A stretch of 64,000 nucleotides of DNA from Conexibacter woesei Iso977N (GTDB lineage Bacteria > Actinomycetota > Thermoleophilia > Solirubrobacterales > Solirubrobacteraceae). The stretch covers positions 1,860,001-1,924,000 of the forward strand of contig NZ_AUKG01000001.1 in the NCBI RefSeq assembly GCF_000424625.1. The letters run 5' to 3'. Below are positions 3,341 to 62,275 of this stretch, piece after piece. The notes under the pieces were generated by a model. That model saw nothing but the letters and a program-made list of their open reading frames with translations. It had not been told where the DNA came from and did not search any database. Numbering within the stretch: position 1 is the stretch's first letter; each line of letters begins with the position of its first letter. Position numbers and translations under genes: made by a program.

Positions 3341-3425
3341 CGGGGGAGGAACGGATGAGGTCCGGCGGTTCTTCCGCCACGCGATCGCGCCCCCGGGGGC
3401 GCCGGTCAGTGCCGGCGCGTGTGGC

Positions 3426-4127
3426 TCAGCGCCAGTTGTGCAGCAGGTCCGCGTCGGAGACCTGCCGGACCACGCGGCCCGGCACGCCCATCACGAAGCC
3501 GCGCTCCGGCACGTCGGCGGTCACGACCGCGCCCGCGGCCACGAAGGCCTCGACGCCGACGGTCACGCCGGGGGTCAGGACGACGCCGCCGCCGATCCGG
3601 CAGGCGCGGCGCAGCGTGGCGCCGTGGAGCTGGTACTCGTCGCCGTGGCGGTTCATCGTGTCGTCGTTGGTCGTCATCGCGCAGGGCCCGACGAACACGT
3701 CGTCCTCGACCGTGCTGAAGCCCGTGATGTACACGGAGGTCTGGATCCGCACGCGGTCGCCGATCGTCACGTCGTTGTCGACGGCCGAGCCGCGGCCGAT
3801 GACCGTGCCGGCGCCGATCGTGGAGCGCTCGCGCACGAAGGACTGGTCGCCGATGATCGAGCCCTCGCCGACGCGCGCGCCCGCGAAGACGATCGCCTGC
3901 GCGCAGATCGCGGCGCCCGCGCCGATGACCAGCGGCGCGTCGCCGACGGGGGCCGACGCGCTCGTGGGGGAGAGCTTGGGGCGCTTGCCGAGGATCGCGC
4001 CGTCCTGGATGACGACGCCGTCGCCGATCACCACGTTGTCGTGGACGACGACGTTGGCGCCGAACGTGACGTTCGCGCCGACCTGGGCGGACGGGCTCAG
4101 CGTGAGGTTGGCCGCGTCGTGGCTCAT
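3426..4127 (-). CDS. Left-handed beta-helix acyl/acetyltransferase
   Basis: This 233-residue protein consists almost entirely of hexapeptide repeats ([IV]G.[GN]..; for example VIGDGVVIQDGAILG, VGEGSIIGD, TIGAGTVIG). It ends in the GVPGRVVRQ turn typical of trimeric sugar O- or N-acetyltransferases of the WlbB/WbpD type. A loop with DDTMNRHG lies where the acceptor site is in those enzymes. The ATG at 4127 is chosen because a -10 element lies 8 nt upstream and the hexapeptides begin soon after. Longer in-frame readings upstream are not gene-like. With the neighbouring glycosyltransferases it may decorate a surface polysaccharide. Confidence 0.82.
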   Translation of the reverse strand: MSHDAANLTLSPSAQVGANVTFGANVVVHDNVVIGDGVVIQDGAILGKRPKLSPTSASAPVGDAPLVIGAGAAICAQAIVFAGARVGEGSIIGDQSFVRERSTIGAGTVIGRGSAVDNDVTIGDRVRIQTSVYITGFSTVEDDVFVGPCAMTTNDDTMNRHGDEYQLHGATLRRACRIGGGVVLTPGVTVGVEAFVAAGAVVTADVPERGFVMGVPGRVVRQVSDADLLHNWR

Positions 4128-4135
4128 GGCGGGCG

Positions 4136-4141
4136 ACCCTA
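4136..4141 (-). promoter_or_regulatory. -10 element TAGGGT, leaderless type
   Basis: On the minus strand TAGGGT ends 8 nt before the ATG at 4127, so transcription should begin at or next to the start codon. This is one member of a recurrent pattern in the window. Confidence 0.5.
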
Positions 4142-4244
4142 CCGGCTCGGCAGGTCGCCCTACGGGTTCGCCCTGCGCGTTCGCGTTGCGCTTCGTTAAG
4201 AGCGCGGGGAGATCGTCCCCGCGCGGGCATACCCTCTCACCGCC

Positions 4245-5723
4245 GTGCTGATCGAGGAACGCTCCGCTGCCCTCCGCGTCTCGCAGGCGCCGTCCGGTAC
4301 GGCGCTGGCCTCTGCGCGCGGACTGCCGGTTCACGGCGCGGTGCTGCTGGCCGCGGCCTGCGTGGTCATCGCGGCGCTGACGCTGCTGCTGCCCAGCGCG
4401 CCGACGTACGACCCGTGGTCGTGGATCATCTGGGGACGCGAGATCGCGCACCTGGACCTCGTCACGACCGAGGGGCCGTCGTGGAAGCCGCTGCCGGTGG
4501 CGTTCACCACCATCTTCTCGTTCTTCGGCTCGTGGTCGCCGGACCTGTGGCTCGTCGTGGCGCGCGCCGGCGCGATCGCCGCGTGCGCCCTGGCCTTCCG
4601 GGTCGCGCGTGGGCTCGGCGGCGGGATCGTCGGCGGCGTGGCCGCGGCGTGCGCGCTGGCGATCGCACCGTGGTGGATCCGCTCCGGCGCCTTGGGGAAC
4701 TCCGAGGGCTTGTTGGTGGCCTTGGTGCTGGGCGCGATCGATCGCGAGATCGCGGGCGACCGCCGGTTCGCGTTCTGGCTCGCCGTCTGTGCGGGGCTGC
4801 TGCGGCCGGAGGTCTGGCCGTTCCTGGGGTTGTACGGGCTGTTCGTGATGTACACGAAGGCCTACTCGTGGCGCGTGGTGGTGGGCGTCGGCGTGGCCGT
4901 GCTCGCCGTCTGGACGCTGCCCGAGTGGTGGGGCTCCGGTGACCTGCTGCGCGCCGCGCACCGGGCGAAGAACGTCAACGCGGGGGCGCCGACCTACGCC
5001 GACAACCCGGCGCGCGAGGTGCTGCACGACGCGGGGCTGATGCTGACGACGCCGCTGATCGTCGGGCTGCTGTGCTGCGGCGTGATGGTCATCGCGCGGC
5101 GCCGCGACCGCATCATGGCCGTGGTGATCGCGATGTCGATCGCGTGGCTCGGGCTCGTCGCGTACATGACGTCGGACGGCTTCAGCGGCAACCAGCGGTA
5201 CCTGATGGGGCCGGTCGCGTTGTTGATGGTCTTGGGCGGTGCCGGGATCGGCTGGGCGCTCGGGTTGGTCGTCGACGGCATCGCGCGCTACGTGCCCGCG
5301 GTGAGGTCGGTGGGGCGGCGGCCTTCTCTTGTTGTTGTCGTGCTCGCCTCGGCCGTCGTCGGGCTGGTCTTCGCGGCGCCGAGCTTCGAGCGCTTCTCGC
5401 CCAACCTGAGGGGCTTGAAGTACCAGGCCCAGCTCGCCGACGAGCTGCCGGGGCTGATCCGGACCGCGGGCGGCGCCGAGAAGCTGAAGGCGTGCGGGAC
5501 GCCGTTCACCGGGCCGTTCCTGGTGCCGGTCGTGGCGTGGAACCTGAGGATGCACACCAAGGACATCCGGCTGTCGCCGCAGGCGCCGTCGGTGACGTTC
5601 CGGGTCAGGACGACCGCGCGGGCGCGGGCGGTGCCGTCGCTGAAGGACGTCGGCGACGACACGACGCTGGCGACGGGCTCCAAGTGGCGCATCGTCGCGT
5701 CCTGCGGGAGCCCGGGGGCGTGA
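4245..5723 (+). CDS. GT-C fold membrane glycosyltransferase
   Basis: This 492-residue protein has about 11-12 membrane segments. An acidic/aromatic loop follows TM1 (PTYDPWSWIIWGREI, then GPSWKPLP), where ArnT/PMT-like GT-C enzymes carry their catalytic Asp and bind polyprenyl-phosphate sugars. A short soluble C-terminal tail contains CGTPFTGPFLVPVVAW. GTG at 4245 is the first start. No strong ribosome site is visible, and TACCCT at 4230-4235 could be a -10 for a nearly leaderless message. The stop codon overlaps the next gene's GTG, so the two glycosyltransferases form an operon. Many Leu residues use TTG, often in runs. Confidence 0.78.
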   Translation: MLIEERSAALRVSQAPSGTALASARGLPVHGAVLLAAACVVIAALTLLLPSAPTYDPWSWIIWGREIAHLDLVTTEGPSWKPLPVAFTTIFSFFGSWSPDLWLVVARAGAIAACALAFRVARGLGGGIVGGVAAACALAIAPWWIRSGALGNSEGLLVALVLGAIDREIAGDRRFAFWLAVCAGLLRPEVWPFLGLYGLFVMYTKAYSWRVVVGVGVAVLAVWTLPEWWGSGDLLRAAHRAKNVNAGAPTYADNPAREVLHDAGLMLTTPLIVGLLCCGVMVIARRRDRIMAVVIAMSIAWLGLVAYMTSDGFSGNQRYLMGPVALLMVLGGAGIGWALGLVVDGIARYVPAVRSVGRRPSLVVVVLASAVVGLVFAAPSFERFSPNLRGLKYQAQLADELPGLIRTAGGAEKLKACGTPFTGPFLVPVVAWNLRMHTKDIRLSPQAPSVTFRVRTTARARAVPSLKDVGDDTTLATGSKWRIVASCGSPGA

Positions 5724-7345
5724 GCGTGGTCGAGGACGGGCCGACGACGGTGCCGGACACGGCCGTCGCGCCTTCGCCTGCTCCGGGTGCTTCCGGTGCG
5801 GCGTCGCGTTCCTCCTGGTGGCAGGACACGCGGTGGGCCTGGCGGGTCCTCGGCGTCCTGGCGATCATGGGGCTGTCGGTCTGGCTGCGCTCCCACGCGA
5901 TCACCGCGAAGTTCTGGATCGACGAGGGCCTCAGCGTCGGGATCGCCCACCACGACTTCTGGTCGATCCCGGGCGTCCTGAAGAAGGACGGCTCGCCGCC
6001 GTTGTACTACATGTTGCTGCACTCCTGGATGGGGGTGATCGGCGGCGACGGCGAGTCCCGGACGCACGCGCTGTCGCTGCTGTGCGCGACGCTCACGATC
6101 CCGAGCGGCTGGTGGTTCGGCCGCCGGCTGTTCGGCGAGAAGTCCGCGTGGGCGACCGCCGCGCTGTGCGCGACGCTGCCGTTCCTGACGTACTACGCGC
6201 AGGAGACGCGGATGTACGCCTTGGTCGCGGTGCTGGGGCTGTGCGCGTCCGGGTCGTTCGCGATGGCCTACGCGGTCGGGGACCGGCGCTGGATCCCGGT
6301 GTTCAGCGTGTTCATGGCGTTGACCGTGTACGCGCACAACTGGGGGTTGTTCCTGGCCTTGGGGTCGGGGGCGGCGTTCCTGGTGCTGTGGCGCCAGACC
6401 GACCGCGAGCAGCGCCGGGCGTTCTTCAGGGACGGCGTGCTCGGCTTCGGGTTGTTGGTGTTGTTGTATCTGCCCTGGATCCCGACCGTGTTGTTCCAGG
6501 CCAAGCACACGGGCGCGCCGTGGGCCGAGGCGCCGGACTTCAACGGGTTGTTGAACGGGTTGCAGAACCTGGTCGGCGGGTTGACGACGGCGTTGATGTT
6601 GTTGATCGTCGGGATCGCCGGGCTGGCGACTTTGAGCGGCGGGCGCGAGGGTCGCGAGCGCTCGCGGACCGTCGTCGCCTTGGGCGTCTCCGTGGGCGTG
6701 GCGGTGGCGCTGGCCTGGCTGGCCTCGCAGGCCTCTCCCGCCTGGGCGACGCGCTACTTCTCCGTCTTCATCGGCCCCGCGTTGCTGATGGCCGGCGCCG
6801 GTCTGGTCCGTTTCGGCAAGCCCGGCCTGATCGCCCTCGGGATCACGTTGGTGTTGTGGTTCAACCCGCACGAGCGCCAGATCCGCGGCAAGTCCGACGC
6901 CTACCGCGTCGCCGGGACCTTGAAGTCCCAGGGCCTGATCCAGAAGGGCGACCTCGTCGTCGCCGTGCATCCGGAGTACGGCCCGGCGATGCGCTACTAC
7001 CTCGGCGGTGGGTACAGGTGGGCCGACGCGCTCGGGCCGGTGACCGACAACCGCGTCTTCGACTGGCGCGACGCGCTCGACCGCTTCAAGGCGGCGGGCC
7101 CGAAGCGGACGCTGGCGAAGCTCGAGCCGTCGGTGAGGTCAGGCCAGCACCTCATCCTGATCATGCCGATCATCCGGACCGCCTCCTGGGGCGCCCCCTG
7201 GACCTCCGAGATCCGCCACCGCGCCCCCCAATGGGAACGCGCCCTCAACACGGACAAGAACTTCATCCGCATCGGCCCCGTGCCCTCCTTCAGGAGGCGC
7301 GCCCTGCCCCGCGGCGTCCGAGCGATCGTCTACCTCAAGAAGTAA
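5720..7345 (+). CDS. ArnT/PMT-like membrane glycosyltransferase
   Basis: This 541-residue polytopic protein starts at GTG 5720, overlapping the upstream TGA (GTGA). The segment after TM1 (FWIDEGLSVGIAHH) and PPLYYMLLHSW match the PMT_2/ArnT family. In that family the first-loop Asp-Glu pair is catalytic and the donor is a polyprenyl-phosphate sugar. A long C-terminal extracytoplasmic region contains MRYYLGGGYRWADALGP, a segment duplicated in decayed form at 10809-10994. It probably acts with the upstream paralogue in exporting or modifying cell-surface glycans. The gene directly borders the accessory island. Confidence 0.8.
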   Translation: MSVVEDGPTTVPDTAVAPSPAPGASGAASRSSWWQDTRWAWRVLGVLAIMGLSVWLRSHAITAKFWIDEGLSVGIAHHDFWSIPGVLKKDGSPPLYYMLLHSWMGVIGGDGESRTHALSLLCATLTIPSGWWFGRRLFGEKSAWATAALCATLPFLTYYAQETRMYALVAVLGLCASGSFAMAYAVGDRRWIPVFSVFMALTVYAHNWGLFLALGSGAAFLVLWRQTDREQRRAFFRDGVLGFGLLVLLYLPWIPTVLFQAKHTGAPWAEAPDFNGLLNGLQNLVGGLTTALMLLIVGIAGLATLSGGREGRERSRTVVALGVSVGVAVALAWLASQASPAWATRYFSVFIGPALLMAGAGLVRFGKPGLIALGITLVLWFNPHERQIRGKSDAYRVAGTLKSQGLIQKGDLVVAVHPEYGPAMRYYLGGGYRWADALGPVTDNRVFDWRDALDRFKAAGPKRTLAKLEPSVRSGQHLILIMPIIRTASWGAPWTSEIRHRAPQWERALNTDKNFIRIGPVPSFRRRALPRGVRAIVYLKK

Positions 7346-7380
7346 CCGGGGCCCGTCACCCGGCGCCTCCGGCACCGCCA

Positions 7381-7760
7381 CCCTCGCTACACGCGCCTCC
7401 TCGCCTCTGGTACCGCCACCGCAGCGGGGCGGTCAGCCACACCTGCAGTGCCAGCGTCTCACCACCAGTACGTCGTCGCGCCTGGCACGCCGACCCTTCG
7501 CACTCTCCGCGGTCGCCTCTACCGGGCGATCCGTCACGTCCCGTCCCCCTCGGTACACGCGCCTCGTCGCCTCTGGCGCCGCCACCGCAGCGGGGCGGTC
7601 AGCCACACCTGCAGTGCCAGCGTTCCGCAACCAGTACGTCGTCGCGCCTGGCACGCCAACCTTCGCGCTCTCGCGGTCGCCTCTACCGGCGATCCGTCAC
7701 GTTCCGCCTCCCTCGGCAGACGCGTCCCATCGCCTCTGGGACCTTCATCGCGGGCGGACG
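7381..7760. repeat. Tandem ~165-bp imperfect direct repeat, about 2.3 copies
   Basis: Units begin at 7381, 7547 and 7710 with CCCTCG-TACACGCGCCT-like starts (166 and 163 bp apart); the third breaks off after about 50 bp. A core of more than 40 bases, starting ccgccaccgcagcggggcgg, is identical in units 1 and 2. Open frames across it have no family resemblance and are not conserved between units, so I read it as non-coding. The following stretch, 7761-8175, shows no supportable gene. It is slightly poorer in G+C than the flanking core. Confidence 0.8.
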
Positions 7761-8175
7761 ATCAACCTCACTGATCGCTCCAACTTCGCTTCTGGTCGTG
7801 CTCTCCGTCGGCGCAGCGGTTGGCTGTCAGGGAGCTGCGGGCCTCTTACCGTCAGAGCCGGCGCGCTTCGGGTGCGGTGGGGAGGCGTTGCGATTCGGGT
7901 GCTTGGCTTCGCCGCTGATCTCGCGCAGCGCCCAGCCGTACTCATAGCCCCTGAACTCCGTGACGGGCTTGGGTTCGTGGTTGCGGCGGTGAAGCCAGCG
8001 GGTGAGGCGGCTGAGGGCGATGGGGGAGGGTTACCCGGGACGGAAGACGCCGAAGAGCCGGCGTTCGTTCTGAGGGGGCCGCGTTGAGCGTTCGGCCAGA
8101 AGCGCGACGAGGCTGCGCGGTCGATCATCCCGCTCGACCTGCCGGTCGAGTCGCGGCCTTGTCATGAGCGCGCCG

Positions 8176-8649
8176 TCAGCGCGCTGTCTTCGGCACCGCG
8201 GACAGCGGTTCCAGGTCCTGCATCTGGCCGTTCAGCAGTGATGGCGCTTCACGGTCTTTCAGGAAGCGGTAGCTCTGCGGGGTGACGAAGTGCCGTTGGC
8301 GCCGGCGCAGCTCATGAAGCCGGATCGGTCGAGCGAACTTCGCCGTCGCATCGACGACGATCGCACAAGGCTGGGCGGCGCCTTCGAGGTAGTTGTCGTA
8401 CTCGGCCCGAGTCAGGCCCATCGCAGGAGCATGTCGTGACCAGATGTCCTCGGGATCGGACGTCTCGGTCTCAGCGACGCGCACGGCGCCCACGAGCGCG
8501 CACGTCGGCGAACTTTCGTAGAGCAGGCACAGGGTGCCCGGCGCGATGCGCGCTCGGCGCCGTCGCAGCTCGACCGTCTTCGTGCCATCAAGCAGCGCGG
8601 CGGCGAATCGTGGGCGCACGCTGAGGAGCACGATCTGGTCAGCTCGCAT
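8176..8649 (-). CDS. ASCH/PUA-like domain protein
   Basis: This 157-residue protein begins with the ASCH pattern: LLSVRPRFAAALLDGTKTVELRRRR (read in two parts), then PGTLCLLYESSPTCALVGAVRV. ASCH domains adopt the PUA-like fold and are predicted to bind RNA or modified nucleic acids. The C-terminal third is basic (LHELRRRQRHFVTPQSYRFL). Its ATG lies inside the end of the upstream GNAT-PIN gene (11-bp overlap), so the two are translationally coupled and probably work together. This is a sequence-based family assignment; the biochemical role is unknown. Confidence 0.75.
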   Translation of the reverse strand: MRADQIVLLSVRPRFAAALLDGTKTVELRRRRARIAPGTLCLLYESSPTCALVGAVRVAETETSDPEDIWSRHAPAMGLTRAEYDNYLEGAAQPCAIVVDATAKFARPIRLHELRRRQRHFVTPQSYRFLKDREAPSLLNGQMQDLEPLSAVPKTAR

Positions 8650-10690
8650 GGGGCGGGCGGTAGTCGAGGATGCGCACGAACGTATGTTCGTCTATCGGGT
8701 GGACGGACTGGAGCATGACGGCAGCGGGCGCCATCAGGTTCTCGTAGTCCTTCAGCGGTACGGGTCCGAGGCGACGTGTCGCGGTGAACCGGAGTGCCAT
8801 GGCCGTCGGGCCCTTGCCCGCGGCCTTCACCACATCTTGCTCGGTCCATACGCCAAGCGCCCTGAATCGCTGGTAGAGGCGCTTCGGTTCATCGACGACC
8901 ACGTCGGTGAGATGCGACACGCCCCGCACATTTCCTGCCCCCGGCTCATCACCCGAGACGTACCAGACCAATCGTGCAGGGGCGGCGATCCCGCGACTGT
9001 TCAGCGGGCTTCTGTAGTACACGAGCTCCCGTCGCAGGCCGAGTCGCCAGGGCCGCGGAAGCAGTTGGCCTGCCGCGAGGCCAACATCAACGAGGTCGGT
9101 CGCCCAGCCGTGCCTGATCGGTACGTAGTAGGTGGGGAGACCGGCGCCGAGGACGACGAATGGGGCAAACCACCGCTCGGCGAGTGCGGCGCGGTGCACG
9201 AGGTCGTTCCCGGTCGGCGCGAAGAGCCCGTCGTCGACCATCGGCGAGTTGAGCCGGGTGGCAAGCGCGTGAAGCTCGCCGAGGGTGCCACGTCCGGTCA
9301 GCGGGTGAGCGACGATCTCGTCCCTGTCGTTCAACGCGAAGCCTTCGTCGCGAAAGCTGCTCTCGACGGCGCGCGACGGCCGCTCATCAAGCACTCGCAC
9401 GACCTCGACTTCCGCTCCGACCGCCTCGTCTCGCATCATCGCGAGGAGGTGGCGTCCGATGGTGGTCTCCGCGACGCCCGAGGTCACGCGTGCAAGCAGA
9501 ACGTCGAGGGAACCACCAGTGACCACCCAACAGGCCAGGCCCCGCAACTCGCCCGCAACCTCGATCACTTCGAGGCGGGCGTCCGGGTGCACTGCGAGGT
9601 CGTCGATCTCGTCGCGCAGACCGCGGATGCGGTCTCCAAGGCGGTGATTGACGAAGCTGGGCGCGAGACCAGGAAGCGTCGTCGCGTCGACCGCGCGCCG
9701 TGTGACGTCGGTGCCGGCCAGCTCTGCCGGGCGGTACTGGTCGTCGCGTGCGGTCTCGTCGAGCTCGAGCAGGAACTGCTGCGGCGTGACGATCGCCGTG
9801 GACCCGATTCGTTCAGCCGTGCGCCCGTATCGCGCGATGAACCTCCGGTCTCCGGTGACCACCCACGTGGCGTTCGCGGCGATCGCCTGCGCGAGGTGGA
9901 TCAAGTCGTCGTTGTCGGTTGGCGGTGCGTCCGGATGCGCGCCGTCGATCACGGCACGGACCTCCTTCCAGCCGTTGGTGCTGTCCGAAGCGAGGCGCAG
10001 CGGCTCGGTCGCCTGGCGCTGGCGGGCCTTGCGGTCCGGATCGTCTCCCCGGTGGATCTCGTGGAGAATGTGATCGGCCACTCCGAGCCGCGCGTGCTCG
10101 CCGATCCAGTCGGCTCGAAGCTGCTCGGCATGGCGCTTCGTGCCTTCGACGACATCGAAGAAGGTCGACGCGTCCAGTACCGCAAGCGGTCGCGTGTCCT
10201 GCTCGTGCAGGAACGTGAACAGATCGGGCTGGCCGAAGGACCGGAACCATCGGGTCAGGAGCTTGCCATCGAGGCTTCGGCCGGCCTTCGCCGAGACGGG
10301 GTGGAAGTCGAGCTTCTCCCAAAGGGTTGTTGCGGGGAAGTCGTCGCGGCAGCGAAGCACGATGCCACGTCGGTTCGGGTGCGCGTCCGCGATCGCGTCG
10401 ACGAGCAGCCGCGCGAGCCCGCGGCCCTGGTGTGGCTTCGCAACGACGAGCTGCACGATGCGGATCTCGTCGCGTGGCAGGTCGTAGAGGACATACGCGA
10501 CGACCCGGTCCTCGATCGTCGCGGCGAGAAGCGTTCGCTGTGTGGTCCGCTGCTCGAACGCGGCGTCTGGGAGGAAGCCGACCGTCGCCTTCGCGGAACG
10601 CCCGAGCCTGATGACCTCCCGCAGGGCGTCAGATCCTCGGGGCGGTGCGACCAGCTCGATGTCGGGCAGGTTGTCTGACTGAGCGCTCAC
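8639..10690 (-). CDS. GNAT-PIN fusion with C-terminal PUA/EVE-like region
   Basis: This 683-residue protein has three parts. Residues ~10-150 are a GNAT acetyltransferase with the acetyl-CoA P-loop HQGRGLARLL (~87-96). Residues ~165-310 are a PIN-like nuclease with acidic residues at D173 (VLDAST), E211, D261/D262 and D281 (VVTGDRRF). A C-terminal half of ~370 residues ends in a region (ELVYYRSPLNSRGI, RLVWYVSGD, VKAAGKGPT) that resembles PUA/ASCH/EVE-type nucleic-acid readers, less certainly. The start is GTG at 10690; no strong ribosome site is visible. It precedes and overlaps the ASCH gene. The fusion suggests modification and cleavage of an RNA, possibly in defence or as a toxin. Confidence 0.72.
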   Translation of the reverse strand: MSAQSDNLPDIELVAPPRGSDALREVIRLGRSAKATVGFLPDAAFEQRTTQRTLLAATIEDRVVAYVLYDLPRDEIRIVQLVVAKPHQGRGLARLLVDAIADAHPNRRGIVLRCRDDFPATTLWEKLDFHPVSAKAGRSLDGKLLTRWFRSFGQPDLFTFLHEQDTRPLAVLDASTFFDVVEGTKRHAEQLRADWIGEHARLGVADHILHEIHRGDDPDRKARQRQATEPLRLASDSTNGWKEVRAVIDGAHPDAPPTDNDDLIHLAQAIAANATWVVTGDRRFIARYGRTAERIGSTAIVTPQQFLLELDETARDDQYRPAELAGTDVTRRAVDATTLPGLAPSFVNHRLGDRIRGLRDEIDDLAVHPDARLEVIEVAGELRGLACWVVTGGSLDVLLARVTSGVAETTIGRHLLAMMRDEAVGAEVEVVRVLDERPSRAVESSFRDEGFALNDRDEIVAHPLTGRGTLGELHALATRLNSPMVDDGLFAPTGNDLVHRAALAERWFAPFVVLGAGLPTYYVPIRHGWATDLVDVGLAAGQLLPRPWRLGLRRELVYYRSPLNSRGIAAPARLVWYVSGDEPGAGNVRGVSHLTDVVVDEPKRLYQRFRALGVWTEQDVVKAAGKGPTAMALRFTATRRLGPVPLKDYENLMAPAAVMLQSVHPIDEHTFVRILDYRPPHAS

Positions 10691-54499: not shown

Positions 54500-54539
54500 A
54501 TCGCGGGTGGGTAGGCTAGGTCCTGACCCCACCCGCGAT
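54500..54539 (+). terminator. 12-bp hairpin terminator with an embedded promoter-like loop
   Basis: Arms ATCGCGGGTGGG (54500-54511) and CCCACCCGCGAT (54528-54539) pair perfectly and are followed by TCTTTG, ending the NlpC transcript. The 16-base loop contains TAGGCT (54512-54517), matching the -10 of cysS and the ECF gene, so pspA transcription may start at about 54525 inside the structure. Confidence 0.7.
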
Positions 54540-54557
54540 TCTTTGTACGGAGGCCCG

Positions 54558-55316
54558 ATGCCGGGTATGAGTGGCCGTTTCTCGACGGTCGTCAAGGCGA
54601 AGATCTCGAAGCTGCTCGACAGGGCCGAGGATCCCGCCGAGACGCTGGACTACAGCTACCAGAAGCAGCTGGAGTCCCTGCAGAACGTCAAGAAGGGCAT
54701 CGCCGACGTCGTGACCGCCAAGAAGCGGTTGCAGATGCAGTCCTCGAAGCTGGAGCAGAGCGTCGTCAAGCTCGACACGCAGGCGCGCCAGGCGCTGTCG
54801 ACGGGCAACGAGGAGCTCGCGCGCGTCGCGCTGGAGCGCAAGAACGTCGCCCAGACCGAGCTGCAGTCGCTGGACACGCAGGTCCAGGAGCTGGAGGCCC
54901 AGCAGCAGAAGCTGACGGATTCGGAGGCGAAGCTCCGGACCAAGATCGAGGCCTTCCGGACCAAGAAGGAAGTCATCAAGGCGCAGTACAGCGCCGCCGA
55001 GGCGCAGGTCCGGATCAGCGAGGCCGCGACCGGTGTCGGCGAGTCGATGGCCGACGTCGGCCTGGCCATGCAGCGCGCGGTCGACAAGACCGAGGACATG
55101 AAGGCGCGTGCCGATGCGGTGTCCGAGCTGGAGGCCGCCGGCACGTTCGACGACCTGACGCAGCTCGGCAGCGGCGAGGACGACATCGACAAGCAGCTCC
55201 GGGAGCTGTCTTCCGGTGCCGCGGTCGACGACGAGCTGGCCAAGATGAAGGCCGAGCTCGGTTCCGGCGGCGGTGACGCCAAGCAGCTCGAGGGCGGCAC
55301 CGAGGCCTCGGCATGA
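54558..55316 (+). CDS. pspA: PspA/IM30 (Vipp1) membrane-stress protein
   Basis: This 252-residue, almost wholly coiled-coil protein has MSGRFSTVVKAKISKLLDRA EDP, then DYSYQKQLESLQNVKKGIAD and long heptads up to ~190. An acidic, Gly-rich C-terminal tail with DDELAKMKAELGSGGG closes it. PspA oligomers (ESCRT-III-like) bind and stabilise damaged membranes. ATG 54558 follows a strong GGAGG site. Its stop overlaps pspAA (ATGA). Confidence 0.92.
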   Translation: MPGMSGRFSTVVKAKISKLLDRAEDPAETLDYSYQKQLESLQNVKKGIADVVTAKKRLQMQSSKLEQSVVKLDTQARQALSTGNEELARVALERKNVAQTELQSLDTQVQELEAQQQKLTDSEAKLRTKIEAFRTKKEVIKAQYSAAEAQVRISEAATGVGESMADVGLAMQRAVDKTEDMKARADAVSELEAAGTFDDLTQLGSGEDDIDKQLRELSSGAAVDDELAKMKAELGSGGGDAKQLEGGTEASA

Positions 55317-56695: not shown

Positions 56696-57688
56696 CTATG
56701 CCGCCGGTTGGGCGAAGGGGATGGTGTTGGAGAGGCCGGCGGTGGAGAGGGCGGTGGTGGTGCGGGTGTCGCGGAGGGCGGAGACCGTGGGGGGCCAGGG
56801 GGTCTCGGTGGACCACGTGGAGAGCGCGGTCAGGCCGGAGGTGGAGAGGGAGTCGAGCTCGCGGAGGTCGATGAGGATCGCGGGGTAGAGGGTCCGGCGG
56901 GTCTCGACGATCTCGCGGAGGCGGCCGACGGTCGTGTCGTCGAGGACGCCGAAGGGCGCCACGACGAGCGTGGTGCCGTCCCGGTGCATGCGCACGCCCC
57001 AGGGCACGGCGGCGCCAGGACCGCCGCCGCCGAGGCGGCGGTGCAGCAGGGACGGCAGCGCGTCGGTGTCGCCGACGACGTGGTCGGCGGCGACGGCTGC
57101 CGACGCGTCGCTCATGCTCGCGAACGTCACGCCCACGATCAGCGGCGGCGCGTTGAGGCGCCGGATCAGCGACAGGGCGCGTTGGGAGGCGAGCACCTGG
57201 GCGGCGTCGGCGACGGGCAGGACGAGCAGCTCGACGCGCGCGTCCAGGACCTCGTCGCAGATCGTGCCGGCCTCGCGGTCAAGGCCTATGAGTTGGGTCG
57301 ACCAGCCGCCGGCGTCCAGGACGTCGGCGAGCGCGCGGCTGTCGAGCTCGCCGATCACGCCCGCGGGCGCCAGCACGGCGGCGCGCCGCCCGAGTCCTTC
57401 GTCGGACGTCGGCAGGACCGCGCTCAGCTCCGCCAGCGCGGCCTGGGCGGCACTGCGCGCGACGGCACGGCGGTCGTCGGCCGCGGGCCCGCCGCCCGCG
57501 TCGCCGACGGCGGCGAGGAACGGGCGCAGGACGTCGCGGTAGGTCGCTCCGGTGCCGACGTCGGCGGCCAGGGCGGCCTCCATCGCCTCGCGCAGCGCGA
57601 CCGGGTCGCGCGGGGGCTGCGGAGTGACCGCTCGCCGTCGGCGAGCGCCGTGGTCCGGGGCCGGCCCGAACTGGGGATCGCCGGCCAT
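56696..57688 (-). CDS. Degenerate B12-binding-fold protein fused to a STAS domain
   Basis: This protein of about 330 residues has an N-terminal helical region (ALREAMEAALAADVGTGATY, SAAQAALAELSAVLP) and a Rossmann-like part (AAVLAPAGVIGELDSRALAD, VLDAGGWSTQLIGL, ARVELLVLPVADAAQVLAS). Together they look like a cobalamin-binding module in which the E-x-H-x-x-G histidine has become Asp. The C-terminal ~100 residues are a STAS domain (TTLVVAPFGVLDDTTVGRLR, AILIDLRELDSLSTSGLTAL) with Ser/Thr at the phosphorylation site. Likely an anti-anti-sigma factor with a sensory module. ATG 57688 is set by a -10 7 nt upstream. Confidence 0.75.
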   Translation of the reverse strand: MAGDPQFGPAPDHGARRRRAVTPQPPRDPVALREAMEAALAADVGTGATYRDVLRPFLAAVGDAGGGPAADDRRAVARSAAQAALAELSAVLPTSDEGLGRRAAVLAPAGVIGELDSRALADVLDAGGWSTQLIGLDREAGTICDEVLDARVELLVLPVADAAQVLASQRALSLIRRLNAPPLIVGVTFASMSDASAAVAADHVVGDTDALPSLLHRRLGGGGPGAAVPWGVRMHRDGTTLVVAPFGVLDDTTVGRLREIVETRRTLYPAILIDLRELDSLSTSGLTALSTWSTETPWPPTVSALRDTRTTTALSTAGLSNTIPFAQPAA

Positions 57689-57695
57689 CGGGACC

Positions 57696-57701
57696 ATGCT
57701 A
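57696..57701 (-). promoter_or_regulatory. -10 element TAGCAT, leaderless type
   Basis: The element ends 7 nt before ATG 57688 and overlaps the alternative ATG at 57697, so it argues for the shorter start. Confidence 0.5.
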
Positions 57702-57827
57702 CGCCACCTCCGGCCATCGCACCGGGACCCGGCGCGCAGCCGCGCAGGCCCGATCCACCGCGCCCGCGACGCGCGCGCCCTACGCGCATCACGCGCGCCC
57801 GGGTGCGCGCCCGCGCGCCCGCAACGC

Positions 57828-57857
57828 TTGTGCGCTCGCGTCCTGGGTACTTACACT
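57828..57857 (+). promoter_or_regulatory. Promoter TTGTGC-N18-TACACT
   Basis: The -35 is at 57828-57833 and the -10 at 57852-57857, upstream of the kinase/B12/phosphatase operon, giving a leader of about 37 nt without a clear ribosome site. The rest of the 212-bp divergent gap is GC-rich and otherwise featureless. Confidence 0.5.
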
Positions 57858-57900
57858 CGAGAGCCTTCCACGGCTCGCCCCCGAACCCCGTCCCCGCCGA

Positions 57901-58278
57901 ATGCTCCGAGCACAGGACATCCCGCGCGATCCCCACGCGCCCGCCGTTGCTCGTCGCATGGTCGACGACTTCGACGGCCTTCTGCCCGAGGCGACCGTCG
58001 ACCAGGCGCGCCTGCTGATCTCCGAGGTCGTCTCCAACGCCGTCAAGCACGGCGACGGGCCGATCGTCCGGGTCATGATCGACGGCGAGCAGGGCGGCGA
58101 GCTGCGCTGCGAGGTGACCGACGAAGGCCACGGCTTCGTGCCCAAGGCCCGCGACAAGCCCTCGACGGTCGCGGGTGGCTGGGGCCTGCACCTCGTCGAG
58201 ACGCTCTCGCGACGGTGGGGTGTCCGCGAGGGCTCCACGCACGTCTGGTTCGAGCTCGCGGCGACGCCGGACGCTTGA
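57901..58278 (+). CDS. RsbW-like anti-sigma factor/serine kinase (HATPase_c_2)
   Basis: This 125-residue GHKL ATPase of the RsbW/SpoIIAB class has LLISEVVSNAVKHGDGPIVR (N-box), CEVTDEGHGFVP (G1) and VAGGWGLHLVETLSRRWGV (G2). Such proteins bind a sigma factor and phosphorylate a STAS antagonist. The divergent STAS protein is an obvious partner; no sigma factor gene adjoins. The stop overlaps the next gene's TTG start (TTGA). Confidence 0.9.
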   Translation: MLRAQDIPRDPHAPAVARRMVDDFDGLLPEATVDQARLLISEVVSNAVKHGDGPIVRVMIDGEQGGELRCEVTDEGHGFVPKARDKPSTVAGGWGLHLVETLSRRWGVREGSTHVWFELAATPDA

Positions 58279-58979
58279 GCGGCGACGCCGCGCCGCCGCC
58301 TGCCACTACGCCCGCCGGACCCGACCTGTCCGGCGTCCGCGCGCGCTACCTCGAGCACATCCTCACGCCCGACGCCCGGATCGCCTGGAACGTCATCGTC
58401 GAGGCGCTCGACGACGGGATCGCGCCCGGGCGCCTGTACCTGGAGGTCCTGACCCCGGCGATGGTCGAGGTCGGGCGGCTCTGGGAGACCGCGCAGATCG
58501 GCGTCGCCCAGGAGCACCTCGCGACGCAGATCACCCAGAGCGTCCTGGCGCGCCTGGCGCCGTCGCTGGAGCTGCAGGTCGCGCAGGCCCCGCGCCTGGC
58601 GCTCGTCTCCGGCACCCCGCGCGAGCTGCACGGGATCGGCGCCCGCATGGTCGCCGACTTCCTCGAGGCCGCCGGGTGGGACGTCCTGCTGCTCGGCCCC
58701 GACGCGCCGCAGGAGGAGATCGTCGCGCTCGCCCAGCAGCGCGCGCCCGACGTCGTGGCGCTCTCGACCTCGTTGTCCTTCAACCTGCTCTCCGCCGGGC
58801 GCACGTTCGCCGCGCTGCGCGCGCACTGCTCGCCGGTCCCGCTCCTGGTCGCCGGCGGCCGCGCCTACGAGGACGACGCCGGGCGCGCGCAGCTGATGGG
58901 CGCCGACGTCTTCGCCGCCGACCCCGAGACGCTGATCGCCGAGCTGGCAGCCCGCCTGCCGCCTGCCGCTGCCCGCTAG
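58275..58979 (+). CDS. Stand-alone cobalamin-binding protein with CarH-type photoreceptor motif
   Basis: This 234-residue protein has residues ~20-100 as the four-helix B12 cap with W70-x9-E80-H81 (LWETAQIGVAQEHLATQ). Residues ~105-230 are the Rossmann B12 domain with E117-x-H119-x-x-G122 (RELHGIGARMV), where His is the lower cobalt ligand. LALVSGTP, VLLLGPD and SPVPLLVAGGRA follow. W-x9-EH is the signature of adenosylcobalamin photoreceptors such as CarH, but here there is no MerR DNA-binding domain. TTG 58275 is the only start and overlaps the kinase stop. Confidence 0.85.
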   Translation: MSGDAAPPPATTPAGPDLSGVRARYLEHILTPDARIAWNVIVEALDDGIAPGRLYLEVLTPAMVEVGRLWETAQIGVAQEHLATQITQSVLARLAPSLELQVAQAPRLALVSGTPRELHGIGARMVADFLEAAGWDVLLLGPDAPQEEIVALAQQRAPDVVALSTSLSFNLLSAGRTFAALRAHCSPVPLLVAGGRAYEDDAGRAQLMGADVFAADPETLIAELAARLPPAAAR

Positions 58980-58991
58980 GTTCGTTCCACC

Positions 58992-60638
58992 TTGGAACGT
59001 GGAGGAGACGAGCTGCAGGCGCTGGACGCGCTGCTCTTCGCGAGCCGGACGCTCTACGCCGCGCGCGTCGACCGCGCCGGGATCGTCGTCGCCGCCAACC
59101 CCGCGCTGACCGCCGCGGCCGGTGGCGACCTGCGCGGCGAGGCGCTCGACTCGGTCGTCGCCGCGCCCCAGCGCCCGGTCCTGCACCGCTACCTCCAGGA
59201 CGCCGGCGTCGCGTGGGAGACGTTCCAGATCGGCTTCTGGCAGGGCGGGACCGCGCCCGCCGAGGACCGCCTCGTCCACGTGCGCGAGGTCGGCGACGAC
59301 GAGCTGCTCGTCGTCTCCGAGCCGCACTCGGCCGAGCGCGACCGCCTCGTCGAGCAGGTCCTGGCGCTCAACGACGACCTGATCGCCTCGCAGCGCGCGC
59401 TCGGCCGCCGCCAGCGCGAGGTCGCCCGCGCGCAGGCCGGGACCGAGGAGGCCGAGAACCGCGTCCGGCGCCTGGAGGCGATCGTCGTCGCCGGGTTCAC
59501 GGCCGCGTCGCTGGACACGACGCTGGAGCGGCTGCTGGTCCTGGCGCGCGAGGCGCTCGGCGCGCAGCGGGCCGCGGTCCTGCTGGTCGAGGACGGCAAC
59601 CACCGGCTCCTGCGCGTCCGGGCCGCGATCGACATGGACATCGTCGGGGACCTGGCGACGTGGGGGACCGGCGTCTCGGGCGCGATCGCCGCGGCCGGGC
59701 AGGGGATGATCTTCGATGACATCGGGTCGGCCGAGGGCCTCGCGCCGGAGCACCGCCACCTGCACGGGTCGCTGGCGGGCGTGCCGCTGCTGCTCGACGG
59801 CGAGGTGATCGGCGTGCTGCACGTGAGCACCGCGCAGGTCGGGCGCTTCGGCGAGGACGACCTGCGGCTGCTGGAGGCCGTCGGCGACCGCGCCGCGCTG
59901 GCGATCGGCCACGCGCAGCTGCGCGAGCGCGAGCGCAACCTCGCCGAGACGCTGCAACGTTCGCTGCTGCCGCGCGTCCTGCCGAGCGCGGCGGGGCTGC
60001 ACCTGACCGCGCGCTACCTGCCGCGTGGTGCCGAAGGCCCGGTCGGCGGCGACTTCTACGACGCGTTGGTCCTACCGGGCGACCGCGTCGGGCTGGCGAT
60101 CGGCGACGTCGCGGGCAAGGGGCTGGGCGCCGCCGCGCTGATGGGCCAGGTCCGGGCAGCGCTGCACGCCTACGCGTTGATCGACCCGGACCCCGCGGCG
60201 GTCGTCGACCGGCTGGACCGGTTCGTCTCGGCCATGGACGCGACCGCGACCGCGATGTTCGTGACGATCGACGCCGAGGGCAGGATGGACGTGGCGAGCG
60301 CCGGGCATCCGCCGGCGGTCGTCGTCGACGCGTCCGGCGAGGCGCGGCTGGTCACCGGCGCGCTGTCGCCGCCGCTGGGCGCCGGGATCACCGACCGCCC
60401 GCGCGACGCCGAGCCGCACTTCCTACCGGCCGGCGGCCGTCTCCTGCTCTACACCGACGGGTTGGTGGAACGCCGCGACGAGCGCCTCGACCGCTCGCTG
60501 GAGGCGCTGCGCGTCGTGGCGGCCACCGCGCCGCCGACGCTGGAGGCGATGTGCGACCGCGTCCTCGACGCACTGGCACCGGACGTCGGGTCCTGGCCCG
60601 ATGATGTAGCACTACTCGCAGTCTTACGAGATGGCTGA
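58992..60638 (+). CDS. PAS-GAF-PP2C (SpoIIE/RsbU-type) serine phosphatase
   Basis: This 548-residue protein has a PAS-like region (~15-110, ARVDRAGIVVAANPALTAAA), a coiled coil (~115-165) and a GAF domain (~170-310, LDTTLERLLVLAREALGAQR). A PP2C/SpoIIE phosphatase follows: LQRSLLPRVLPSAAGL, GGDFYDALVLPGDRVGLAIGD (metal Asp), DVAGKGLGAAALMGQVRAAL, TAMFVTIDAEGRMDVASAGH, RLLLYTDGLVERRDER and SWPDDVALLAV. It should dephosphorylate the STAS antagonist and release the kinase partner. TTG 58992 is the best available start. Confidence 0.88.
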   Translation: MERGGDELQALDALLFASRTLYAARVDRAGIVVAANPALTAAAGGDLRGEALDSVVAAPQRPVLHRYLQDAGVAWETFQIGFWQGGTAPAEDRLVHVREVGDDELLVVSEPHSAERDRLVEQVLALNDDLIASQRALGRRQREVARAQAGTEEAENRVRRLEAIVVAGFTAASLDTTLERLLVLAREALGAQRAAVLLVEDGNHRLLRVRAAIDMDIVGDLATWGTGVSGAIAAAGQGMIFDDIGSAEGLAPEHRHLHGSLAGVPLLLDGEVIGVLHVSTAQVGRFGEDDLRLLEAVGDRAALAIGHAQLRERERNLAETLQRSLLPRVLPSAAGLHLTARYLPRGAEGPVGGDFYDALVLPGDRVGLAIGDVAGKGLGAAALMGQVRAALHAYALIDPDPAAVVDRLDRFVSAMDATATAMFVTIDAEGRMDVASAGHPPAVVVDASGEARLVTGALSPPLGAGITDRPRDAEPHFLPAGGRLLLYTDGLVERRDERLDRSLEALRVVAATAPPTLEAMCDRVLDALAPDVGSWPDDVALLAVLRDG

Positions 60639-60769: not shown

Positions 60770-61342
60770 CTAGATCGGGATGCCCCAGAGGGGGAACCAG
60801 CGCTCGAGCTCCTGCTCGATCGGCAGCTCGGCGCCGATCTGGGCCTTGATCTGGAGCTCGCGCTCGGTCGAGCGCTGCTGCTCGCCGCCGGCGGGCACGA
60901 AGGGGTACCACGTGCCGCGCTTGTAGTTGTAGATGAAGTAGACGGGCTGGCCGTCGGCGGTCTGGAAGGCGAAGACCGCGCAGAGGACGCGGTTGCCGTA
61001 GCCGCCGACGTCGAGCGCGTCGGAGACCGCGTTGATCCCGACCGCGAGGTCGTCGACGTCGTCGTCGTGGAGGACCATCCAGCGGTAGCCGTAGGTGTCG
61101 TCGCTGGTCGTGAGCGTCGTCCCGGTCTCCTCGCCGGTGCCGCGCACGACCTCTTCCATCTCGGAGACGATCTGCGCGAAGTCGCCGGTGGCGAGCGGCT
61201 GGAAGACGATCGCCGCCGCGCCGCGCGGGCGGATCCCCGGGCCGGCGTCGAGGGCGATCGCGGCGGTCGTGATCGCGAACAGGCGGTCCGGGGCCGGGCC
61301 CTTGACCTTGCTGCGGCCCAGGATCGAGTCGAGGAAGCCCAT
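60770..61342 (-). CDS. pspAB: PspA-associated protein PspAB
   Basis: This 190-residue protein matches the PspAB family: MGFLDSILGRSKVKGPAPDRLFAI, FQPLATGDFAQIVSEMEEVV, DTYGYRWMVLHDDDVDDLAV and YFIYNYKRGTWYPFVPAGG, with a C-terminus rich in Glu and Trp. Members occur with PspA or HtpX in actinobacteria and haloarchaea. It follows htpX by 9 bp in one operon. The molecular role is unknown. Confidence 0.85.
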   Translation of the reverse strand: MGFLDSILGRSKVKGPAPDRLFAITTAAIALDAGPGIRPRGAAAIVFQPLATGDFAQIVSEMEEVVRGTGEETGTTLTTSDDTYGYRWMVLHDDDVDDLAVGINAVSDALDVGGYGNRVLCAVFAFQTADGQPVYFIYNYKRGTWYPFVPAGGEQQRSTERELQIKAQIGAELPIEQELERWFPLWGIPI

Positions 61343-61351
61343 GTTGTAGGA

Positions 61352-62275
61352 CTACGCCAGCGCCGGGCGGACGGGGCCGGTCGACTGCAGCTGGGACTCC
61401 AGCCGCGCGAGTGCTGCGATCCGCTGGTCCATCGGCGGGTGGGTCGAGAACAGGTTGTAGATCGAGTCCTTCACCTTGACCGGCACGATGTAGAACGCGT
61501 TCATCTCGGAGTGGGCGCGCAGGTCGCCGGTCGGGATGCGGTCGTTGACGCCGGAGATCTTCAGCAGCGCGCTCGCCAGCGCCGACGGGCGGCCGGTGAT
61601 GACCGCGGCGCCGCGGTCGGCGGCGAACTCGCGGTAGCGCGAGAGCGCCTGCATCAGGAAGAACGACACGACCCAGACGACGGCGGAGACCAGGATGACC
61701 GCCATGAACGACGGGCCGTCATCGTCGTCGTCGCTGTACCCGCCGCCGTAGCCGCCGCCGAAGAGGAAGCCGAACTGCACGATCGTCGACGCGATCGACG
61801 CGAAGAACCCGCACAACGTCATGATCATCACGTCGCGGTTGACGATGTGGGTGATCTCGTGGGCCATCACGCCCTCGAGCTCGCTCGGCGACAGGAGGTC
61901 CATGATCCCGGTGGTCGCGCAGACCGACGCGGACTTCGGGGTCCGGCCGAGCGCGAAGGCGTTCGGGATCGGCGAGTTGACGACGGCGACCTTCGGCTTC
62001 GGGATGTCGGCCTGGACGCAGAGGCGCTCGATCATCGCGTGCAGCTCCGGGGCCTCCTGCGGCGAGACCTCGCGGGCGCCCATCGAGCGCAGCGCGAGCT
62101 TGTCGGAGGCGAAGAACTGGAAGCCGAGCAGGAGGGCGCAGCCGACCAGGGCCACGGCGCCGCCCACGGACGCGAACAGCACGCCCGCGAAGACCACGTA
62201 GACGAGGCCGAGCAGCAGGAACGTCACGAGCATCCGGATCTGCAGACCCGTGTCGCGACCGAACGACTTGTTCAT
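61352..62275 (-). CDS. htpX: HtpX-like membrane metalloprotease (M48)
   Basis: This 307-residue protein has two N-terminal membrane segments, then NSPIPNAFALGRTPKSASVC, the zinc motif H139-E140-ITH143 (VMAHEITHIVNRD) and the third ligand region RYREFAADRGAAVITG. Two further membrane segments lie between them, with a Gly/Asp-rich loop. HtpX removes misfolded membrane proteins. ATG 62275 is set by TACCCT 7 nt upstream. It heads the operon with pspAB and fits the envelope-stress neighbourhood. Confidence 0.93.
   Translation of the reverse strand: MNKSFGRDTGLQIRMLVTFLLLGLVYVVFAGVLFASVGGAVALVGCALLLGFQFFASDKLALRSMGAREVSPQEAPELHAMIERLCVQADIPKPKVAVVNSPIPNAFALGRTPKSASVCATTGIMDLLSPSELEGVMAHEITHIVNRDVMIMTLCGFFASIASTIVQFGFLFGGGYGGGYSDDDDDGPSFMAVILVSAVVWVVSFFLMQALSRYREFAADRGAAVITGRPSALASALLKISGVNDRIPTGDLRAHSEMNAFYIVPVKVKDSIYNLFSTHPPMDQRIAALARLESQLQSTGPVRPALA

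What the first reader, a model, noticed from the sequence alone, without database searches (positions are those of the whole stretch)
56696..60638. Candidate new system: cobalamin-based partner-switching cluster
A STAS protein with a degenerate B12-type fold, an RsbW-like kinase, a free-standing B12 protein with the CarH photoreceptor signature (W70-x9-E80-H81 plus E117-x-H119-x-x-G122) and a PAS-GAF-PP2C phosphatase are arranged as one divergent unit. In known photoreceptors this cobalamin module sits on a DNA-binding protein. Here it would feed light or adenosylcobalamin status into sigma-factor control by protein-protein switching.
Basis: partly seen in the sequence, partly recalled or inferred. 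Interest (0 to 1): 0.85.

Follow-up and report, generated by a model that had tools for sequence, protein, structure and literature searches.

The report
B12-sensing partner-switching gene cluster
A soil-type actinobacterium carries a four-gene signalling cassette in which a free-standing vitamin-B12 protein built like known green-light sensors sits with a phosphatase, a kinase and a worn-down B12-plus-STAS protein, so light or B12 status could be fed into stress signalling by protein contacts rather than by DNA binding.

Summary
The whole cluster recurs in four genomes in three genomic contexts. The B12 protein's nearest solved structures are green-light B12 photoreceptors. The B12-phosphatase pair is the most widespread part (seven loci; those phosphatases form one clade). 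The STAS protein is doubly degenerate: it has lost the B12-contact residues, and its phosphorylation residue is T/E/P/S/D in five genomes, so it is more likely an adaptor or decoy (or decaying) than an ordinary anti-anti-sigma factor. One relative keeps kinase and STAS but lacks B12 and phosphatase there. Verdict: real; a bilin-less new variant of B12-photoreceptor input to partner switching; light sensing likely but unproven; output sigma factor unknown.

The parts
56696..57697 (-). STAS protein, 333 aa: degenerate two-domain B12 module (about residues 31-222) plus STAS-like domain (about 226-333); canonical phosphorylation position is T286 (S-T-S-G instead of D-S-[S/T]-G)
   Evidence: residues 31-220: block pLDDT 75-96 with a dip to 61 at 191-200; STAS part low; Foldseek: AerR, CtMerR, AppA SCHIC
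57698..57900 (.). divergent intergenic region
57826..57850 (+). candidate promoter-like element GCTT-N15-GGGTAC reading towards the kinase; GGGTAC is present upstream of the kinase in 4 of 5 loci
   Evidence: resemblance to sigma-B-type promoters is recalled, not found in a search
57901..58278 (+). RsbW/SpoIIAB-like kinase (HATPase_c_2), 125 aa; N-box E42/N46, G1 D74-G76-G78 and G2 GGWGL (92-96) invariant in 4 genomes
   Evidence: box names recalled
58275..58979 (+). free-standing B12 protein, 234 aa, TTG start overlapping the kinase stop; no other domain found
58482..58517 (+). W70 to E80-H81 of the B12 protein (adenosylcobalamin-contact residues in CarH)
58620..58640 (+). R116-E117-L-H119-G-I-G122: predicted cobalt-ligand His119; the Gly of the published GxxH motif is Arg here
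58992..60638 (+). phosphatase, 548 aa: N-terminal PAS-like region (not confirmed), coiled-coil-like stretch (by eye), GAF (171-305), SpoIIE/PP2C (362-544)
54507..55316 (+). flank: PspA/IM30 family protein; also near the cluster in G144
60770..62275 (-). flank: PspAB (Pfam) and an HtpX-like protease (name recalled); both also flank the locus in G144 and, by eye, G783; no hit in the stretches of G005 and G173 fetched

Best explanation
A cobalamin-input partner-switching module. The free-standing B12 protein binds adenosylcobalamin between a helical bundle (W70, E80, H81) and a Rossmann domain (His119 under the cobalt), as in CarH and photocobilins, and changes its oligomeric state or surface when green light breaks the Co-C bond or when adenosylcobalamin is scarce. 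Its main target is the co-oriented GAF-SpoIIE phosphatase: the B12-phosphatase pair is the most widespread part of the system (7 loci, against 5 for the kinase | STAS pair). The phosphatase and the RsbW-like kinase set the phosphorylation of a STAS antagonist and so the freedom of the kinase's client, probably a sigma-B/F-type sigma factor encoded elsewhere. The divergent STAS protein is a double pseudo-domain: a B12 module that has lost the residues for B12 and a STAS domain that in three of five genomes cannot be phosphorylated at the usual place. It most likely works as an adaptor that docks on the kinase through the STAS domain and on the B12 protein through the dimer face of the B12 fold. 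Shown: gene content, conservation, fold of the B12 module, loss of ligand residues and phosphosite, one clade of paired phosphatases. Inferred: cobalamin binding, light response, all contacts, sigma output.
For: Best sequence matches of the B12 protein are photocobilins 8j2x/8j2w, CtMerR 8jbs, photocobilin 8j2y and CarH, ahead of methyltransferase corrinoid proteins and methionine synthase; Foldseek ranks 1-13 are the same photoreceptors, a methyltransferase corrinoid protein is rank 14. W, E-H and the ligand His are kept in 56 of 56 aligned B12 rows (rows found by a profile of the cluster proteins, so not an unbiased sample); none of the four signature motifs in 4 of 4 STAS-protein modules. 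Whole cluster in G000, G144, G005, G173, in three contexts. Co-oriented neighbouring B12 and SpoIIE genes in 7 loci: those four plus G784, G810 and S. soli; the 7 phosphatases are one clade, 100/99 against 7 others, and 80/82 on the SpoIIE domain alone against 13 others including 7 of the 10 other phosphatases of this genome; phosphatase and B12 trees share ((window,G144),G005) and (G784,G810). Overlapping starts: KIN/B12 4 bases in window, G144, G173; B12/PP2C in G005, G784, G810, G173, but not in window, G144 or S. soli. Kinase and phosphatase motifs invariant in 4 genomes. G000 has a cobalamin adenosyltransferase and 8 SigBFG-type sigma factors over cut-off.
Against: G783 has kinase and STAS protein but no B12 or phosphatase at the site and no B12 match in its genome (68% complete, contig ends just after the STAS gene). 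G113 and G150 (81% complete) of the genus gave no full-length STAS protein. In the B12 tree the seven paired proteins are not one clade (three label changes), and G175 has a B12 gene divergent from a SpoIIE gene outside the clade. No SigBFG gene in the cluster. The STAS phosphosite is not conserved. The window protein has Arg for Gly in the GxxH motif. Nothing here measures cobalamin or light; adaptor contacts are untested; the STAS protein evolves fastest and its frame in G783 ends about 20 residues early, which could also mean decay.
Confidence: 0.6

Rival explanations
1. Cobalamin-status sensor, not a photoreceptor: the B12 protein reports adenosylcobalamin (or corrinoid) level to the phosphatase; light breakage of the cofactor is incidental.
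For: The W, E-H and His residues that contact the cofactor are kept and an adenosyltransferase is present; nothing in the gene content demands light. The residue after W70 is Glu (Ala in G173), so the bis-His light state of T. thermophilus CarH cannot form.
Against: Nearest solved relatives are light-responsive; SasPcob, AbDPcob and CtMerR respond to green light without that second His (PMC11796333).
Confidence: 0.25
2. Ordinary RsbV/RsbW/RsbU switch: the window's STAS protein is a normal phosphorylatable antagonist (Thr286) with an odd N-terminal domain; the B12 protein is an add-on.
For: Same divergent layout as the Rsb-like locus of G090 (STAS | kinase - RsbU_N/SpoIIE phosphatase). Thr in the window and Ser in G173 could be phosphorylated. 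G784 has a canonical STAS (IDSSG) beside B12 and phosphatase.
Against: Glu, Pro and Asp at that position in G144, G005 and G783; Pfam barely sees the STAS domain.
Confidence: 0.2
3. The degenerate module of the STAS protein binds another ligand, such as heme, as the AppA SCHIC domain does (heme recalled).
For: AerR and AppA SCHIC are among the top four fold matches.
Against: No invariant His or Cys in the four aligned STAS proteins.
Confidence: 0.08
4. The STAS protein is a decaying remnant and the working system is only B12 protein plus phosphatase (plus kinase).
For: Fastest-evolving member (28-53% identity between genomes); the G783 frame ends about 20 residues short at a TGA; S. soli has the B12-phosphatase pair with no STAS hit and only a weak kinase hit (3.9e-4) about 2 kb away.
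Against: Long frame kept in five genomes, full length in four, and it is the part kept with the kinase in G783.
Confidence: 0.15

Closest known systems
Photocobilins (SasPcob, AbDPcob; PMC10979010; passages and sections 9 and 21 read)
   Same: CarH-type B12 module used outside a DNA-binding protein; the paper predicted interaction with STAS, SpoIIE and PP2C-like proteins; I find phosphatase - B12 protein - STAS operons in other Actinobacteria, with the one B12 protein tested being a photocobilin end to end
   Different: The window protein is 234 aa with no bilin-binding globin domain; a distant branch of the B12 tree; it is paired with a pseudo-B12 STAS protein and a kinase
CarH/LitR and CtMerR B12 photoreceptors (PMC11796333; abstract, passages and sections 8, 11, 12 read)
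   Same: Fold and adenosylcobalamin-contact residues; GxxW, EH and GxxxP motifs
   Different: No DNA-binding domain; Gly of GxxH is Arg; no second His for bis-His ligation
RsbV/RsbW/RsbU-type partner switching (G090 locus used as local comparison)
   Same: Divergent STAS | kinase - SpoIIE layout; intact kinase and phosphatase motifs
   Different: Stressosome-like genes and RsbU_N replaced by a B12 protein and a GAF-bearing phosphatase; STAS phosphosite not conserved; no SigBFG gene in the cluster
AerR (antirepressor of CrtJ) and AppA SCHIC
   Same: B12-fold proteins that act by protein contact (roles partly recalled); first and fourth fold matches of the STAS protein's N-terminal module
   Different: No STAS domain; they act on a transcription factor
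YtvA (LOV-STAS, Bacillus; search listing only, plus recall)
   Same: Light sensor feeding a STAS-based stress switch
   Different: Flavin LOV domain fused directly to a working STAS domain in a stressosome

Membership tests
CarH-type B12 photoreceptor module | Helical-bundle (PF02607) plus Rossmann (PF02310) B12 domains | tested here: met
   4.3e-16 and 9.7e-18, over cut-offs; AF2 pLDDT 91.6
CarH-type B12 photoreceptor module | Published light signature GxxW, EH, GxxH, GxxxP (PMC11796333) | tested here: inconclusive
   3 of 4 in the window (RxxH for GxxH); all 4 in its three full-cluster orthologues; 40 of 56 B12 rows have all four
CarH-type B12 photoreceptor module | Closest solved relatives are photoreceptors | tested here: met
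CarH-type B12 photoreceptor module | Adenosylcobalamin binding and green-light photolysis | not testable with these tools
   needs purified protein
CarH/LitR transcription factors | DNA-binding (MerR-type) domain on the same chain | tested here: not met
   only B12 domains in 234 aa
Photocobilin | Bilin-binding globin-like domain next to the B12 module | tested here: not met
   protein ends after the B12 module; the G492 comparison protein matches SasPcob end to end
Partner-switching (RsbV/W/U type) | HATPase_c_2 kinase with intact ATP motifs | tested here: met
Partner-switching (RsbV/W/U type) | SpoIIE/PP2C phosphatase with intact metal-binding Asp residues | tested here: met
   GGDFYD, GD, TDG and DD invariant in 4 genomes; metal role recalled
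Partner-switching (RsbV/W/U type) | STAS antagonist with a phosphorylatable Ser/Thr in D-S-[S/T]-G | tested here: not met
   T (window) and S (G173), but E (G144), P (G005) and D (G783); the motif itself is kept in none of the five
Partner-switching (RsbV/W/U type) | Client sigma factor of the kinase identified | not testable with these tools
   8 SigBFG-type sigma factors over cut-off in the genome, nearest of these about 35 kb away; a sub-cut-off partial match lies about 31 kb away inside the window
Stressosome | RsbR/RsbS/RsbT genes in the cluster | tested here: not met
   none among the window cluster genes; look-alikes are present in the G090 and G188 loci

The most novel reading that the evidence does not exclude
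Partner switching by pseudo-chromoprotein exchange: the B12 protein forms homo-oligomers in the dark, and after light or cobalamin loss its dimer face is taken by the B12-blind module of the STAS protein, which brings the B12 protein, kinase and phosphatase into one complex and sets the kinase free or ties it up without phosphorylation of that STAS. A related but blinded sensor domain would then be the wire between photoreceptor and switch.
Probability: 0.22. Interest if true: 0.8.

Novelty: new variant of a known kind. Interest (0 to 1): 0.52.

Why it matters
It gives a compact, genetically linked case for testing how a B12 photoreceptor without a DNA-binding or bilin domain talks to a signalling enzyme. 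The 2024 photocobilin paper predicted STAS/SpoIIE partners from network analysis; here the phosphatase, kinase and a degenerate partner are neighbours and the B12-phosphatase pair recurs in seven loci, so the partner is predictable and each step can be tried in vitro. If light controls the phosphatase, it is also a green-light tool acting on protein phosphorylation.

Tried and rejected
CarH-like transcription factor: rejected, no DNA-binding domain. Photocobilin: rejected, no globin-like domain. Corrinoid methyltransferase or methionine synthase part: disfavoured, those structures rank below photoreceptors. Heme-binding SCHIC-like domain: no invariant His/Cys. Full stressosome: absent from the cluster.

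dN/dS is not usable as an absolute measure (strong third-position GC bias, high divergence); only the ranking (STAS protein fastest) is used. The AF2 model of the STAS protein is poor beyond residue about 222, so its STAS domain rests on sequence. PDB sequence search with the STAS protein found nothing convincing (best E 0.26). Literature searches for STAS or RsbR with cobalamin gave no direct precedent in the listings beyond PMC10979010, and the one for a sigma-B promoter consensus gave no paper; only listings were read, the lists are capped (15, 12 and 12 shown of 227, 7,211 and 297), and only held open-access papers are covered. The photoglobin paper (PMC8717448) is not held, so its domain survey was not read. 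The phylum context count uses 28 of the 30 loci returned (the other two are G000 and G005). One search left out one short row (L146) of the 60 found. One search recovered 7 of the 10 other SpoIIE genes of the genome. My simple gene caller misses overlapping genes, so absences in neighbourhoods rest on profile hits to open frames of 60 aa or more; L150-L155 were read from gene calls only. The seven B12-phosphatase loci are those with co-oriented neighbours that I came across in family-level loci; they are not from a systematic count.
Full report
What is there. Four genes lie at 56696-60638: a 333-aa STAS protein on the minus strand, and, divergently, a 125-aa kinase, a 234-aa B12 protein and a 548-aa phosphatase on the plus strand. 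Pfam finds HATPase_c_2 in the kinase, both B12-binding domains in the B12 protein and GAF plus SpoIIE in the phosphatase, all over cut-off; in the STAS protein it finds only sub-threshold B12-binding (E 0.0031) and STAS (E 0.13). The kinase stop and the TTG start of the B12 gene overlap by four bases; a 4-base overlap is kept in G144 and G173.

Where it lies. The window is C1:1860001-1924000 of a 5.70-Mb genome. The same family holds a genome with a contig of the same length (168391 bases) as a named Solirubrobacter deserti record, so the organism belongs with the Solirubrobacter family; its own name is not known to me.

Conservation. Full-length relatives of the STAS protein were found in 4 of 399 class genomes, in no further genome among 396 of the phylum, and in 5 of the 146 held family genomes: the window's genome, G144, G005 and G783 of the genus (4 of the 7 shown) and G173 of another genus; the G783 frame stops at a TGA about 20 residues early. 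In G144 and G173 the gene order is as in the window; in G005 the B12-phosphatase pair lies convergent to the kinase and the kinase | STAS pair is still divergent. Flanks are shared by the window and G144 (PspA, PspAB, HtpX-like) and not seen in the stretches of G005 and G173. Against this, G783 has PspAB, then kinase | STAS protein, with no B12 gene or phosphatase between, and no B12 match in its 68%-complete genome; its contig ends just after the STAS gene. G113 and G150 (81% complete) of the genus gave no full-length STAS protein.

The B12-phosphatase pair is more widespread. Co-oriented neighbouring B12 and SpoIIE genes occur in seven family loci that I came across: window, G144, G005, G173, G784, G810 and Solirubrobacter soli; the genes overlap in G005, G784, G810 and G173, and do not in the window, G144 and S. 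soli. The seven phosphatases form one clade, 100/99 against seven other SpoIIE proteins, and 80/82 on the SpoIIE domain alone against thirteen, including seven of the ten other SpoIIE proteins of this genome. B12 and phosphatase trees agree on ((window,G144),G005) and on (G784,G810); but in the B12 tree the seven paired B12 proteins need three label changes, as unpaired B12 paralogues lie among them, and G175 has a B12 gene divergent from a SpoIIE gene outside the clade. G784 has another architecture: kinase | MpsC - canonical STAS (IDSSG) - B12 - phosphatase. So a canonical STAS can belong to such a module, and the double-degenerate STAS protein is a feature of the window's lineage.

Is it a photoreceptor module? 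The best PDB sequence matches are photocobilins 8j2x and 8j2w, then CtMerR 8jbs, the GGDEF photocobilin 8j2y and CarH 5c8a; corrinoid methyltransferase proteins and methionine synthase rank lower. The AF2 model (mean pLDDT 91.6) matches photocobilins, CtMerR and CarH at ranks 1-13 and a methyltransferase corrinoid protein at rank 14. Of the published light signature GxxW, EH, GxxH, GxxxP (PMC11796333) the window protein keeps three; the Gly of GxxH is Arg116, while its three full-cluster orthologues keep Gly. That Gly varies: 40 of 56 aligned B12 rows have all four motifs and 15 lack this Gly, but W, E-H and the ligand His are kept in 56 of 56 (the rows were gathered with a profile of the cluster proteins). 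The residue after the Trp is Glu (Ala in G173), not the His that makes the bis-His light state of T. thermophilus CarH; CtMerR, SasPcob and AbDPcob lack it too and still respond to green light. The genome has a cobalamin adenosyltransferase. Light sensing is therefore likely but unshown.

The STAS protein. Its N-terminal half is a relative of the B12 protein: the window B12 protein finds the G173 STAS protein at 2e-13 and the window's own at 0.0046. The four modules form one branch (98 SH-aLRT), as do the four cluster B12 proteins (92). None of the four has W, E-H or the ligand His at the aligned positions. The model keeps the fold (residues about 31-222), matching AerR, CtMerR and AppA SCHIC. 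In the STAS half the residue at the phosphorylation position is Thr, Glu, Pro, Ser and Asp in window, G144, G005, G173 and G783, against Ser in three canonical STAS proteins. So neither B12 binding nor phosphorylation at that place can be its common function; an adaptor or decoy is the simplest reading, and decay is not excluded.

Comparison with known systems. In G090 of the same family a canonical Rsb-like locus has the same chassis without B12 (STAS with DSSG | kinase - RsbU_N/SpoIIE phosphatase, then RsbR-, RsbT- and RsbX-like genes; those last names are my reading of the sequences); G188 has an Rsb-like locus on one strand, cut by the contig end, whose kinase hit is RsbT-like. In the phylum-wide B12 search (143 of 396 genomes with a match) 8 of 28 inspected loci have a SpoIIE phosphatase next to the B12 gene; these 8 B12 proteins form one branch far from the window's. 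Of six fetched more widely, four show phosphatase - B12 protein - STAS, and the one B12 protein tested (G492) matches SasPcob end to end (E 6.7e-86). Thus B12 photoreceptor plus SpoIIE plus STAS is a recurring actinobacterial theme, and PMC10979010 already proposed it from network analysis (sections 9 and 21 read). The window's version differs by lacking the bilin domain, by carrying a kinase and by the pseudo-B12 STAS protein; the listings of searches (the last three capped) show no description of such a protein.

Promoter hint. GGGTAC reading towards the kinase lies roughly 25-56 bases upstream of its start in 4 of 5 loci (not G173); the window holds 16 such words on both strands and simulated sequence about 14 per 64 kb. 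The loci are related, so this is conservation, not five independent finds; the likeness to sigma-B-type promoters is recalled. The stricter GNNT-N14-16-GGGTA[CT] form is met in 3 of 5 and occurs no more often in the window than by chance (2 against 2.6).

Output. G000 encodes 8 SigBFG-type sigma factors over cut-off, 14 STAS matches (the cluster's own is not among them), 11 SpoIIE matches and 23 HATPase_c_2 matches over cut-off of 37. Which sigma factor, if any, the kinase holds is unknown.

Noticed in passing
L053 (G000:C2:757500-771500), B12 frame 6006-7232, urease genes 7266-9600: A second CarH-like B12 protein of this genome lies just upstream of urease gamma/beta and alpha genes (Pfam); B12 relatives next to similar-looking genes (by eye) occur in G113 (L049) and G144 (L052). 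Why a B12 sensor should sit at urease is unexplained.
   Followed up: partly
L150, L151, L153, L154: Operons phosphatase - B12 protein (photocobilin in the one tested, L151) - STAS in other actinobacterial families.
   Followed up: partly
L172 (G784), 1999-6234: Alternative architecture in the same genus: kinase | MpsC - canonical STAS - B12 - phosphatase.
   Followed up: yes
L009, 5971-8294: B12 protein with a C-terminal HTH-like region (by eye) directly followed by a DNA photolyase gene (Pfam); L006, L007 and L010 have similar C-terminal regions (by eye).
   Followed up: no
L061 (G172), 6037-9981: B12 protein next to a PAS-GAF-GGDEF-EAL protein and a small gene that by eye resembles one beside the B12 gene of L056.
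   Followed up: no
L001 and L005 (Solirubrobacter): Paralogous B12 proteins lie beside metallopeptidase genes (M1 in L001, M14 in L005).
   Followed up: no
window 54507-55316 and 60770-62275: PspA, PspAB and an HtpX-like protease flank the cluster in the window and G144, PspAB and HtpX-like also in G783 by eye; an envelope-stress link is possible, but they are not near the cluster in G005 and G173.
   Followed up: partly
window 57826-57850: GCTT-N15-GGGTAC element upstream of the kinase; GGGTAC kept in 4 of 5 loci.
   Followed up: partly
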